Source: Endomicrobium proavitum
GTDB lineage: Bacteria; Elusimicrobiota; Endomicrobiia; Endomicrobiales; Endomicrobiaceae
Reading direction: 5' to 3'
Length of the DNA: 64,000 nucleotides
Assembly: GCF_001027545.1 (NCBI RefSeq)
Contig: NZ_CP009498.1
Span: 744,001 to 808,000, forward strand
Part shown: positions 12,464 through 47,934 of the stretch, piece by piece
Layout: every line of letters starts with the position of its first letter
How positions within the stretch are numbered: the first letter of the stretch is position 1
Notes under the pieces: generated by a model
Database searches by the model: none
Told to the model about the DNA's origin: nothing
What the model saw: the letters and a program-made list of their open reading frames with translations, nothing else
Made by a program: the position numbers and the translations under genes

Positions 12464-12590
12464 AAAATAATTATGCAAATTCTATGATAAAGCTAAAAAA
12501 ACAATGGTAAAAATACCATTTTTTATACTAATTAGGAGCATGATAGGCAAACATTTAAATTACCAAGTAAAATTTATTATAATTTTGTTT

Positions 12591-12977
12591 ATGAAAAAAC
12601 TCGGACGAATTATTATTCCGTTAAAACATTTGCCTCAACAACATGAGTTGGAAACGGCTCAATTCTTTGCTAATCATGGAAAAATAGTTGAATTTATTAT
12701 GCCAAACCGTTCCAAAGGTATAAAAAATGCCGATATAAAAATGGATTCTATTTTATGGGAAATTAAATCTCCGTTTAATGACAGCCAACGCACAATAGAA
12801 CATCTTTTAAGAAAAGCTCTTAAACAATCTAAAAATATTATCTTTGATTTGCGCAGACTCAAGGTATCAGATGCTAAATGTATTACCCAAATAAAATATC
12901 AGTTTAAACTTATTAAAGGTATAAACCGTATAATTATTATTACAAAGTATCACAATATTCTTGACTTTAAGAAATGA
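12591..12977 (+). CDS. Orphan CdiA-CT-like PD-(D/E)XK nuclease
   Basis: 128 aa from the ATG at 12591 (MKKLGRIIIP); the frame is open back to 12504. It matches the tRNA-nuclease type C-terminal toxin domain of CdiA: HELETAQFFANHGKIVEF, then ADIK-(x)6-WEIKSP giving the D...E-x-K site, then SQRTIEHLLRKA..QS and NIIFDLRR. In CDI systems such domains cleave tRNA or DNA in a neighbouring cell and are paired with an immunity protein. Here the domain stands alone, with no CdiA body, secretion signal or adjacent small immunity gene visible. No Shine-Dalgarno lies before 12591, but TATAAT ends seven bases upstream, which would give a nearly leaderless mRNA. The ATG at 12540 has GGAG only one base away, which is too close. 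It is the only long gene on the plus strand in the window. Confidence 0.6.
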   Translation: MKKLGRIIIPLKHLPQQHELETAQFFANHGKIVEFIMPNRSKGIKNADIKMDSILWEIKSPFNDSQRTIEHLLRKALKQSKNIIFDLRRLKVSDAKCITQIKYQFKLIKGINRIIIITKYHNILDFKK

Positions 12978-13090: not shown

Positions 13091-13116
13091 AGCGCAAAAG
13101 TTGCGCTTCGTTTTTT
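13091..13116 (+). terminator. Rho-independent terminator (plus strand)
   Basis: AGCGCAA (13091-13097), loop AAG, TTGCGCT (13101-13107), then TCGTTTTTT. The T-run is on the plus strand, so it ends transcription from the nuclease side against the convergent HNH gene. Confidence 0.7.
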
Positions 13117-14191
13117 AAATCCCTGATTTTCTGCGGTTACAATCCTTGCAAAGCATTTGGCAATTTACAGAAGTCGTCTTACCGCCTTCATGCCAAGGAG
13201 TAATATGGTCTGCTTCCATTTCATTTATTTCAAAATGGGTTTTGCATTTCTGACAAATACCTTTTTGCTTCTCATATACTTCGCGTTTTTGATTATCTGT
13301 AAATGAACGAATGTTTAAATATTTTTCTTCGCCGCTTAAAACATAAGGATAAATCCCTGATTTTTTTGTAACATCATCATCCATCATTAGCTTGACAATT
13401 TCTTTTTCTAACTCATTAGCATCTAATTTTTTATCTTTATAATTATTATAAAGCTCTCCCCAAGCCACTCCTTTCATTTCTTTTCTGTATTTTGGAAATA
13501 TGATTTTTACCCAATTAATAACATTTTGAAAATACAGCCATAACTCGTTTGCATTTGAATCGTGTTGATGATTTGACATATAAGCTTCAATACTTCTTTT
13601 AGAAATCCAACTGATAGCTGTTTCCAAATATTCTTGACGATTTGCCGAACCGCTTAAATAATCATCTCCAATTTTTGGACGACTGTTTTTAGAAAAATAT
13701 CTTTTAGCGTCAGAAATCCACGAACCTGCATATACTGCATTTCTCAATTCTTGTTCCGTCAGTTTTTCCCCTGCAATATTTATAGTTTCAAACCATTTCA
13801 ATTTTTCGGAATCCGAACCGCTGCAAATATAAACCATCAATTTATAATTTAAAATTTTCTCTTTTTCGTCATCTTGTAAACTGTGAAAATATTTAAACAT
13901 ATAAGAAAAATCGCCATTGACATATTGGCAAACGGAAATCGTTCTTTGCTGACCGTCTATAACCTCGTAATTTCCGTCTTCACGAACTGACCAATACATA
14001 ACATTTAAAGGGAAATCTTTTGTAATTGTATCAATAACCGCATCGCGCTGCTTATCTTTATAAATAAATTCTCGTTGATAAGGTGGGCGAATATCTAATT
14101 TGCCACCAAACCCTACAACTCCGTTTTCGGCATTGTCTTTATAACCATTTGATAATTCTTTAACAGTGATTTCTTTAAGTTCTATTTTCAT
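13115..14191 (-). CDS. DUF262-HNH endonuclease
   Basis: 358 aa. The N-terminal DUF262 (ParB/Srx-like, GmrS-like) domain has the hallmark DGQQRT at about residues 79-84. The C-terminal HNH nuclease (about 300-358) has CQKC, then EADHITPWHEGG, NCQMLC and CKDCN, i.e. two zinc-type Cys pairs around the catalytic His. DUF262-HNH proteins are found as modification-dependent or methyltransferase-paired restriction enzymes. It starts one base after the methyltransferase stop, with GGAG nine bases before its ATG, so the two form one operon. It is most likely the restriction half of the pair; cleavage specificity is unknown. Confidence 0.8.
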   Translation of the reverse strand: MKIELKEITVKELSNGYKDNAENGVVGFGGKLDIRPPYQREFIYKDKQRDAVIDTITKDFPLNVMYWSVREDGNYEVIDGQQRTISVCQYVNGDFSYMFKYFHSLQDDEKEKILNYKLMVYICSGSDSEKLKWFETINIAGEKLTEQELRNAVYAGSWISDAKRYFSKNSRPKIGDDYLSGSANRQEYLETAISWISKRSIEAYMSNHQHDSNANELWLYFQNVINWVKIIFPKYRKEMKGVAWGELYNNYKDKKLDANELEKEIVKLMMDDDVTKKSGIYPYVLSGEEKYLNIRSFTDNQKREVYEKQKGICQKCKTHFEINEMEADHITPWHEGGKTTSVNCQMLCKDCNRRKSGI

Positions 14192-14192
14192 T

Positions 14193-15125
14193 TTAGCTTG
14201 CTCCTATTCTTTTGTTTCTAATATAAATTCTTCGATATAAAGTTTTACCGTTTACAACATTATCCAAATTTCCCAATATCCCCCAATGATCCAATTGTAT
14301 AATCTCAAACTGTTCAGGGTTATATTTATCAAGAAAAGTTATTGGTACGCCCATAACGCCTGAATAATCAACAGGGATATTGGCTGTTTTTGAAACTTCA
14401 ATGGCGTCATAATTATCATAATTGGGATAATCTGTTGTGTTGTATCTTTTATAGAGAATTAAATCTTCGTGACGCTTTGTAGTGTCAAGATTTGTAAACC
14501 AAAAACTTCTCGCTCCTTCAGCAAGACCATTATTAGTATTAAACCAACGAACGCAATTATACCCAAGCCATACTTTATTTTCTTTAATTAATTTAAATAT
14601 TTCTTTATAACTAATAGAATTATTATTTCCAATAATCAAAAATTTCTTATTGTATTCAACAAGTTGAGCGACATATTCTCTAAAAAGAGAAAACGGTGGG
14701 TTTGTTACTACGATATCTGCTTGTTTTAACAGTTCAATGCATTCTTCACTTCTAAAATCTCCATCACCTTTTAGGCATTTTATTCCAATTTCTAATGGAT
14801 CAGGGACATTGTTCCCGTTTTTATCACCGTAATACTCTAAATAAATGGCTTTTTCAGAGTTATTTTTACTGAATAAATCCATATCTTGATTTTTATAACA
14901 GATAGCAATGAGTTTTTTTAATTTGAATTTTTCAAAATTGTAGGAAAAGAAATGGAAGAAATTACTTACTCGCGGGTCGTCGCAATTGCATAAAACAACT
15001 TTATCTTTAAATTGCCCTTTATAATGTTTAAGTTCTTTTTCTATATCAGAAAGTTGAGTATAAAATTCATCATTTTTGGCATTTTTGGCATTGTGGAGAT
15101 TGGAATTTAAGTTCTTGGAAGCCAT
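14193..15125 (-). CDS. EcoRI-family adenine-specific DNA methyltransferase
   Basis: 310 aa. It begins with an N6-methyltransferase-type entry motif (NAKNDEFYTQ) and has the catalytic motif IV NPPF in VVTNPPFSLFREY (about residue 145), in the arrangement of the EcoRI methylase family rather than of Dam or type I HsdM. It would transfer methyl from S-adenosylmethionine to adenine N6 and protect sites from the DUF262-HNH partner. The ATG at 15125 has AGAGGGG six bases upstream; that ribosome site can itself be paired in a hairpin (15128-15161). It is preceded by an unusually structured leader and separated from purB by a terminator. Confidence 0.8.
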   Translation of the reverse strand: MASKNLNSNLHNAKNAKNDEFYTQLSDIEKELKHYKGQFKDKVVLCNCDDPRVSNFFHFFSYNFEKFKLKKLIAICYKNQDMDLFSKNNSEKAIYLEYYGDKNGNNVPDPLEIGIKCLKGDGDFRSEECIELLKQADIVVTNPPFSLFREYVAQLVEYNKKFLIIGNNNSISYKEIFKLIKENKVWLGYNCVRWFNTNNGLAEGARSFWFTNLDTTKRHEDLILYKRYNTTDYPNYDNYDAIEVSKTANIPVDYSGVMGVPITFLDKYNPEQFEIIQLDHWGILGNLDNVVNGKTLYRRIYIRNKRIGAS

Positions 15126-15340
15126 ATTGTCCCCTCTGTGTGTAATTTGGTATTGGGGACAAAAAAAACGGCGAACTTACCCATGATGTCTTACTCCCAT
15201 GAATAAAGTTCGCCGTAGGTCGCCCTATGTCAAAATGACATAGGACTCCCTATATGAGGCGAACTTTTTTGGGGTAAGACATTGTCTATGCTTTCACATA
15301 GACAGGATTGGGGCATTACCCCAACACCAAAAAAGTATCA
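15125..15340 (-). promoter_or_regulatory. Structured attenuator-like leader of the restriction-modification operon
   Basis: Read on the minus strand from 15340 down, the leader offers: hairpin 15308-15324 (GGGG/CCCC); hairpin 15283-15304 (TGTCTATG/CATAGACA); segment C AAGTTCGCC (15258-15266); hairpin 15224-15244; segment A' CGGCGAACTT (15206-15215); and segment A AAGTTCGCCG (15169-15178) followed by eight T (15161-15168). A' with A is a complete intrinsic terminator. A' with C, extended by ATGTCTTAC (15274-15282) with GTAAGACAT (15186-15194), is a mutually exclusive antiterminator. A third stem, TGTCCCC/GGGGACA (15155-15161 with 15128-15134), covers part of the methyltransferase ribosome site, and the 5' segment 15319-15330 can pair 11 of 12 bases with 15147-15158 to free it. 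A ten-codon leader peptide (MSYPKKVRLI) would start at 15282. Confidence 0.6.
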
Positions 15341-15361
15341 AGTTATTTAAGCGTTTTTCAA
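15334..15361 (-). promoter_or_regulatory. Candidate promoter for the leader
   Basis: Minus-strand TTGAAA (15356-15361), 16 bases, GATACT (15334-15339). Imperfect but correctly spaced and placed just upstream of the structured leader and just after the purB terminator. Confidence 0.45.
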
Positions 15362-47634: not shown

Positions 47635-47711
47635 GAAAAAAAACATCTGACTACTTAATTACGAATTGAAAAACAACAATATCGTGGTATCGCAATCGTA
47701 TGTTGCGGTTG

Positions 47712-47834
47712 TGTCATTTCAGCGAAAGCTGGAATTTATTTTTACTGAATATTTCTTTTAACAACTCATGCTTTCAGTGCGTAAGGAAATATTTATTTTT
47801 ATAAACGTGGATTCCGGCTTTCGCCGGAATGACA
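47712..47834. mobile_element. MITE-like palindromic element
   Basis: Ends TGTCATTtCaGCGAAAGCtG (47712 onward) and CGGCTTTCGCCGGAATGACA (to 47834) are inverted copies of about 25 bases with few mismatches. An inner inverted pair AATATTTC / GAAATATT lies between them, so the whole 123 bases can fold. There is no reading frame inside. It fills the gap between ompA-type gene and tRNA-Lys; the rest of 47547-47934 shows only short AATTGTA/CCCATTG repeats. Confidence 0.6.
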
Positions 47835-47934
47835 AACAATGACAAACATGGGCAATGGGCATTGTTTTTACAATTTACAATTAACGTTTTGTCTCTGTAG
47901 CTATTTTGCACTTTGAACTTTTTCGTTTGAAAAA

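What the first reader, a model, noticed from the sequence alone, without database searches (positions are those of the whole stretch)
15125..15361. Riboregulator-like leader controlling a restriction-modification operon
Seen: on the minus strand three segments of the same sequence (15258-15266, 15206-15215, 15169-15178) can pair in two exclusive ways. One is an intrinsic terminator with eight T; the other is an antiterminator extended by a nine-base stem (15274-15282 with 15186-15194). A further hairpin (15128-15134 with 15155-15161) covers the methyltransferase ribosome site, and the 5' end of the leader can compete for it (11 of 12 bases). A ten-codon leader peptide lies exactly over the antiterminator's 5' arm. 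Known: restriction-modification genes are usually controlled by C-proteins, the methyltransferase itself or antisense RNA. Inferred: a ribosome or ligand-dependent switch decides expression; such attenuation for an EcoRI-like methyltransferase would be new to me.
Basis: partly seen in the sequence, partly recalled or inferred. Interest (0 to 1): 0.8.

Follow-up and report, generated by a model that had tools for sequence, protein, structure and literature searches.

The report
Repeated RNA switch before bacterial genes
The stretch before this restriction-modification operon is one copy of an RNA family that I could not find described: it can fold two mutually exclusive ways, one predicted to stop transcription and one to let it through, and in relatives of this bacterium up to about 127 copies per genome sit before surface-pilin, surface-sugar and DNA-defence genes.

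Summary
The window leader (15336-15161, minus strand) can form P1, an antiterminator (D), an intrinsic terminator (T), a long-range helix (C), an SD-masking hairpin (R) and a pairing of its 5' end with that hairpin's arm (F). Seven helices of at least 9 bp occur against 0.95 expected (0/200 shuffles). A covariance model built only from relatives in another family finds the window copy. In a 17-copy alignment 60 of 64 pairs change on both sides and stay paired. The element is not specific to restriction-modification: it occurs in 90 of 336 genomes of the phylum, with up to 127 copies in one 1.7 Mb genome, mostly 30-50 nt before prepilin genes, also before glycosyltransferase, lipoprotein, DNA-methyltransferase and nuclease genes. 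Of 50 copies, 37 have an ORF start just 3' and none on the other side. Nascent RNA lacking the last arm folds as antiterminator in 90/93 copies; complete RNA folds as terminator in 86/93. The leader peptide is not conserved. No Rfam family matches and no paper was found. Best reading: a dispersed, cis-acting, bistable attenuator. Trigger unknown; transcription and read-through not measured.

The parts
15161..15336 (-). Whole attenuator element, s1 to the end of the U-tract
   Evidence: Found by model R1 that was built without it (15163-15336, E=2e-10); fold z about -9.5
15327..15336 (-). s1: 5' strand of P1 (pairs 15272-15263)
   Evidence: 10 bp; covariation helix 1
15307..15325 (-). Hairpin A (15325-15318 with 15314-15307); its 5' arm also takes part in F
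   Evidence: MFE; covariation helix 2
15283..15304 (-). Hairpin B (15304-15296 with 15291-15283), GAAA loop
   Evidence: MFE; covariation helix 4
15274..15282 (-). C5: 5' strand of long-range helix C
   Evidence: 9 bp with 15194-15186; 9/9 pairs with double changes in 8 distinct sequences
15258..15272 (-). s2: pairs with s1 (P1, 15272-15263) or with s3 (D, 15267-15258)
15222..15246 (-). Hairpin E inside D
   Evidence: 11 bp; covariation helix 6
15197..15216 (-). s3: pairs with s2 (antiterminator D) or with s4 (terminator T)
15186..15194 (-). C3: 3' strand of helix C, lies in the terminator loop
15168..15185 (-). s4: 3' arm of terminator T
   Evidence: -24.4 kcal/mol hairpin; covariation helix 7
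15161..15168 (-). U-tract of eight T
   Evidence: at least 5 T after the stem in 91 of 93 copies
15146..15158 (-). F3: arm complementary to the RNA 5' end (15331-15319)
   Evidence: 13 bp, -21.6 kcal/mol
15129..15160 (-). R: hairpin masking the Shine-Dalgarno sequence (15160-15155 with 15134-15129)
   Evidence: significant against shuffles for this copy
14193..15125 (-). EcoRI-type adenine methyltransferase (PF13651)
13115..14191 (-). GmrSD_N plus HNH nuclease; PADLOC type II restriction enzyme

Best explanation
The leader is a cis-acting, bistable transcription attenuator and one copy of a dispersed RNA family. Five strands form a relay: s1, s2, s3, s4 and the arm upstream of the SD. In the OFF fold s1 pairs with s2 (P1) and s3 with s4 (T), so RNA polymerase stops at the U-tract; in the MTase leaders the SD is also hidden in R. 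In the ON fold s2 pairs with s3 (D), extended by C, so T cannot form; after read-through the freed 5' end (s1 plus the A arm) pairs with the arm upstream of the SD (F), which in the MTase leaders opens R. C can form in both folds; it probably holds s2 near s3 and may stack on T as a pseudoknot. D forms first during transcription, and completion of s4 lets T and P1 displace it, so output would depend on how fast that exchange happens or on a factor that holds one side. Shown by sequence and comparison: the helices, their covariation, their mutual exclusion, the U-tract, and the position before genes. Inferred: termination, read-through, translation control. Unknown: the signal.
For: Covariation of P1, A, B, G, E, T: 60 of 64 pairs with double changes, 93.4% of cells paired against 41-48% when slid. 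C: 83 of 93 copies with >=9 contiguous bp, 79 distinct strands, about 4% with permuted partners. D: 10 of 5000 permutations as good. MFE without s4 is D in 90/93; with s4 it is T in 86/93 and P1 in 81/93; U-rich tail in 91/93. F: 46 of 81 copies at shuffle p<=0.01. ORF start within 75 nt 3' in 37/50 copies, 0/50 on the 5' side. Up to 127 copies per genome.
Against: No transcript or termination data. The nested MFE of the window copy, and of L009 and L020, stays in the D/C fold at full length. The D register differs by three columns between subgroups, so D support rests on hand-registered helices, and P1 and D permutation tests are modest (53 and 10 of 5000). R is significant in only 27 of 81 copies. 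The transcription start is unknown; if it lies inside s1, P1 is weakened in this copy.
Confidence: 0.72

Rival explanations
1. It is a metabolite riboswitch: P1 with hairpins A and B (and the G hairpin in many copies) is an aptamer, and a small molecule stabilises P1, giving termination. This is a version of the best explanation with a named type of trigger.
For: P1 sequence is nearly invariant across copies (s1 identity 0.95-0.96); conserved blocks around the G and E hairpins; mostly GNRA-type loops on B in the first nine sequences; switch topology.
Against: Conserved letters lie mainly in the exchanging strands rather than in a compact binding core; the G hairpin is absent from the window copy; no Rfam riboswitch matches; the target genes share no metabolite.
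Confidence: 0.2
2. It is the loading site of a protein antiterminator or RNA-binding protein, comparable in logic to RfaH/ops or LoaP, that serves a surface-and-defence regulon.
For: Targets resemble those of RfaH, which activates horizontally acquired LPS, pilus, toxin and capsule operons (PMC5449661): pilins, glycosyltransferases, defence.
Against: Each of 12 genomes tested, rich or poor in copies, encodes exactly one NusG-domain protein; no JUMPstart or EAR match among Rfam families.
Confidence: 0.2
3. Ribosome-mediated attenuation: translation of a leader peptide over the antiterminator arm sets the fold.
For: The window has a ten-codon ORF over C5 and s2; many copies have an ATG or GTG in the A loop.
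Against: Only 38 of 99 copies have ATG there; the frame to s2 is scattered (40/27/20) and stops are no better placed in that frame than in others; the window ORF has no good SD.
Confidence: 0.04
4. It is a mobile DNA repeat (MITE- or cassette-site-like) whose inverted repeats only look like an RNA switch.
For: Dispersed, high copy number; tandem pair at L016; targets include horizontally spread R-M genes.
Against: Fixed orientation next to start codons (37/50 against 0/50); U-tract in 91/93; the private C strands covary perfectly; F reaches into the sequence before the SD. Not mutually exclusive with RNA function.
Confidence: 0.07
5. It is a stand-alone small RNA made by termination, acting in trans, with helix C strands as address.
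For: Strong terminator; private C sequences (25 of 25 distinct in G153); 25 of 106 copies lack a start codon 20-75 nt downstream; L009 has no recognised gene directly behind it.
Against: C5 is fully complementary within its own RNA, and cross-copy pairing is no better than shuffled; F ties the RNA to the SD region of the adjacent gene.
Confidence: 0.08

Closest known systems
Four-segment transcription attenuators (trp, his, pheST leaders; from general knowledge)
   Same: Segments 1:2, 2:3 and 3:4 are mutually exclusive; 3:4 is an intrinsic terminator and 2:3 the antiterminator
   Different: No conserved leader peptide; additional long-range helices C and F; targets are not one pathway; very high copy number
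Transcriptional riboswitches and T-box leaders
   Same: A 5' domain competes with a terminator; many copies of one class per genome before different genes
   Different: No Rfam class matches; no ligand known; conserved letters lie mostly in the exchanging strands
JUMPstart/ops with RfaH; EAR and LoaP antitermination
   Same: Serve surface genes such as pili and polysaccharides (PMC5449661)
   Different: No Rfam match to such families; a single NusG protein per genome; here the terminator is part of the element itself
C-protein or antisense-RNA control of restriction-modification operons
   Same: Would limit expression of a type II R-M operon
   Different: Control lies in a structured 5' leader shared with non-R-M genes; no C-protein ORF lies between purB and the MTase

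Membership tests
Transcription attenuator leader | Intrinsic terminator with U-tract upstream of a gene on the same strand | tested here: met
   U-rich tail in 91/93 copies; ORF start just 3' in 37/50 against 0/50
Transcription attenuator leader | Antiterminator that shares the terminator's 5' arm, supported by covariation | tested here: met
   D and T share s3; D permutation 10/5000; D before s4 in 90/93, T after in 86/93
Transcription attenuator leader | Regulated termination in the cell | not testable with these tools
   Needs term-seq or in vitro transcription
Leader-peptide attenuator | Conserved short ORF over the first segments | tested here: not met
Riboswitch | Match to a known class | tested here: not met
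   No Rfam 15 match
Riboswitch | Specific ligand binding | not testable with these tools
   Needs in-line probing or binding assays
Riboswitch | Compact core of near-invariant nucleotides outside helices | tested here: inconclusive
   Conserved blocks in the consensus lie mainly in s1, s2, s3, s4 and around the G and E hairpins
T-box leader | Match to the Rfam T-box model | tested here: not met
   No hit in the window or in homologous loci
RfaH/LoaP-type antitermination element | Specialised NusG paralogue in the genome | tested here: not met
   One NusG-domain protein in each of 12 genomes
Type II restriction-modification operon (downstream genes) | Methyltransferase plus restriction endonuclease | tested here: met
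   PF13651 and PADLOC REase_II; activity not tested
C-protein-controlled R-M | C-protein gene in the operon | tested here: not met
   No ORF of at least 60 aa on the operon strand between purB and the MTase
Integron cassette site or MITE | Target duplications, empty sites or linked recombinase | not tested
   Orientation bias argues against, but strain-level comparison was not done

The most novel reading that the evidence does not exclude
A genome-wide choice mechanism: about a hundred paralogous prepilin genes, and some defence genes, each carry their own self-contained bistable RNA with a private 10-bp lock (helix C), so that individual cells express different, randomly chosen subsets without DNA rearrangement, an RNA-level analogue of phase variation.
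Probability: 0.12. Interest if true: 0.95.

Novelty: new variant of a known kind. Interest (0 to 1): 0.85.

Why it matters
If it works as inferred, this is an undescribed class of regulatory RNA with an unusually high copy number (127 in one 1.7 Mb genome), putting surface pilins, surface sugars and DNA defence, functions that all bear on contact with phages and hosts, under one RNA device. It would also be an attenuation mechanism for a type II restriction-modification operon, for which I found no precedent. The five-strand relay makes precise predictions that compensatory mutations can test.

Tried and rejected
(1) Repeat in the own genome: blastn found no second copy, and R2 gave only a marginal E=0.05 hit. 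(2) Known RNA family: no Rfam hit at gathering thresholds, and only chance-level hits at permissive ones. (3) 6S RNA, considered when L009 showed the element away from a MTase: no Rfam support. (4) Leader peptide: rejected. (5) NusG-paralogue control: no paralogue. (6) R-M-specific leader: rejected. (7) Same RNA before EcoRI-type MTases of other phyla: R1 and R2 find nothing convincing in 80 such loci; Bacteroidales have a different conserved leader. (8) Exact motif in viral contigs: none. (10) Diversifying selection on C: not shown; cross-copy pairing equals shuffled. (11) A search of Bacteroidota genomes with R2 was not possible because a locus cannot be a centre. (12) Literature searches found no description; the library holds only open-licence papers. 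(13) A column-based count of D on A9 was dropped because its register differs by three columns between subgroups.

Full report
Observation. The MFE of 15345-15122 is -93 kcal/mol, z -9.97. Seven helices of at least 9 bp with at least 3 G-C pairs occur in the 176-nt element against a mean of 0.95 in dinucleotide shuffles, 0 of 200 reaching seven.

Downstream genes. The operon is an EcoRI-family adenine methyltransferase followed by a GmrSD_N-HNH nuclease. No C-protein ORF is present. The genome is a single 1,588,979-base contig.

Homologues. The leader is single-copy in its own genome. A blastn search of relatives found 25 identical bases at the 5' end in another genus (L009). That locus folds into the same architecture with compensatory changes, but no methyltransferase follows. 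Upstream regions of the EcoRI-type methyltransferase genes in the phylum showed the same architecture in L016, L019, L020, L021, L022, L023 and L041, and in L017 where part reads N. For nine sequences the helices P1, C, D, T, F and R are listed with energies.

Covariation. In hand-registered helices of the first nine sequences, C has double changes at 9 of 9 pairs and 99% pairing against 47% when 3' strands are permuted (0/5000); D has 100% (10/5000; one bulged base of L009 was left out) and P1 99% (53/5000). In the structure-aware alignment A9 (17 copies), 60 of 64 pairs keep pairing through changes on both sides, 93.4% of cells pair against 41-48% with slid partners, and no shuffle reaches any measure. 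A9 was fitted to the model, so it leans towards that structure, but the margin is large. In 93 copies C is at least 9 contiguous bp in 83, with 79 distinct 5' strands, against about 4% for permuted partners. Within G153 all 25 C strands differ and their mean identity is 0.31 against 0.26 expected at random, while s1 is 0.95 identical. Cross-copy pairing is not below the shuffled level, so selection for orthogonality is not shown.

Independent recovery of the window copy. Model R1 was built only from L019, L021, L022 and L023. It finds the window element at 15163-15336 with E = 2e-10, and also L020, L016 (twice) and L017. With filters off it finds L041 and L009 too.

Spread and copy number. R1 hits 90 of 336 genomes of the phylum. 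With more candidates scored, copies per genome are G153 127, G241 56, G130 49, G216 30, G222 25, G031 25, G146 19, G225 13, G102 8, G140 8, G197 8, G006 6, G100 4 and G118 2. R2, which was trained on members of the window's family as well, finds copies in six further genomes of that family (one to eight each at E <= 0.05, the weakest doubtful) and one strong copy in G117.

Position and targets. Of 50 copies with enough sequence on both sides, 37 have an SD-preceded ORF starting within 75 nt 3' and none on the 5' side. By a strict motif 54 of 106 copies precede prepilin-like ORFs (GFTLIELLVVVLIIGIL...), and several more have the motif after a longer N-terminus. Others precede glycosyltransferases, a polysaccharide pyruvyl transferase, lipoproteins, EcoRI-type and C5 methyltransferases, an HsdR-like protein, a GmrSD_N protein and a protein with a weak, below-cutoff MmeI-methyltransferase match. 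In the window's genus the hits with a readable gene precede the EcoRI-type MTase (G000, G001), a C5 methyltransferase (G001), the MmeI-like protein (G003) and a glycosyltransferase (G002). Five prepilin genes examined in G117 have no such leader, so the RNA is not bound to prepilins as such.

The switch. With the last arm s4 left out, D is in the MFE of 90 of 93 copies; with s4 present, T is in 86 and P1 in 81. A T-rich tail follows in 91 of 93. In the full 5' UTR the two folds are close to balance (P1 above 0.5 in 39 of 73 copies, F above 0.5 in 23). The 5' end (s1 and the A arm) is complementary to the stretch between terminator and SD: 46 of 81 copies at shuffle p<=0.01 and 58 at p<=0.05. 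R, which hides the SD, is significant in only 27 of 81 but strong in several MTase leaders, where the SD is almost fully paired. The window copy differs from most in preferring D/C by nested MFE even at full length.

How it most likely works. During transcription D, extended by C, forms first. When s4 emerges, T can displace s2 from s3, and s1 captures s2 as P1. If this happens before polymerase has left the U-tract, transcription stops. If polymerase passes, s1 and the A arm can pair with the arm upstream of the SD (F), which keeps s1 away from s2 and, where R exists, opens the SD. The U-tract position, exclusivity and covariation are shown; termination, kinetics and translation effects are inferred. 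What biases the exchange is unknown. A leader peptide is disfavoured, a NusG paralogue is absent, and a ligand or another protein remains open.

Start site. A block like TACAATTTAAT ends directly before s1 in many copies and places a -10-like hexamer 10-12 nt upstream of s1, so transcripts may begin at s1. In the window the sigma-70-like hit at 15361-15334 comes from a scan that found no more sites than expected, and the real start is unknown. If it lay within s1, P1 would be weakened in this copy.

Novelty. No Rfam 15 family matches and no paper in the held library describes such an element. It works like a four-segment attenuator but fails the leader-peptide test, so it is filed as a new variant of transcription-attenuator leaders. 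A description could exist in literature not held here.

Bacteroidales. EcoRI-type MTase genes of Bacteroidales carry a different structured leader, not matched by R1 or R2. RNA leaders on this R-M type may therefore have arisen more than once.

Noticed in passing
L056, L067, L074, L082, L095, L101, L111, L114, L116, L123, about 270 nt upstream of the MTase match: Bacteroidales EcoRI-type MTase genes carry another, unrelated-looking structured leader: a long closing stem, a small terminator-like hairpin and a hairpin at the start codon; 23 of 41 predicted pairs have compensatory changes and no Rfam family matches.
   Followed up: partly
G153 and G117 (whole genomes): Very large prepilin-like gene families: 214 matches to a strict prepilin motif in G153 and 65 in G117, none in G000 or G031.
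   Followed up: partly
G hairpin of the multicopy element, e.g. L126, L129, L137, L146, L222: The apical loop comes in a few recurrent types (CUAAUUA, UAGCUCC, UGAUCCC, GUCAUGA, UUAUAAU), many holding a short palindrome, which might mean loop-loop dimers.
   Followed up: partly
L016 2568-2744 and 2801-2988 (-): Two copies of the element stand in tandem before one EcoRI-type MTase gene.
   Followed up: no
50 nt upstream of s1 in many copies, e.g. L020, L021, L022, L023: A short inverted repeat such as AAGCC...GGCTT often lies just before the conserved TACAATTTAAT block.
   Followed up: no
12504-12977 (+): An ORF with a CdiA_C domain (PF18451) lies near the end of the R-M operon on the opposite strand.
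   Followed up: no
L009 1716-1845: Behind this copy an SD-like stretch is followed by ATG TAA and a short ORF remnant, as if the controlled gene had been lost.
   Followed up: no
47668-47839 (-): Weak R2 match (21 bits, E=9e-4 in the window) near the tRNA pair; it lacks the conserved strands on inspection and is probably spurious.
   Followed up: yes
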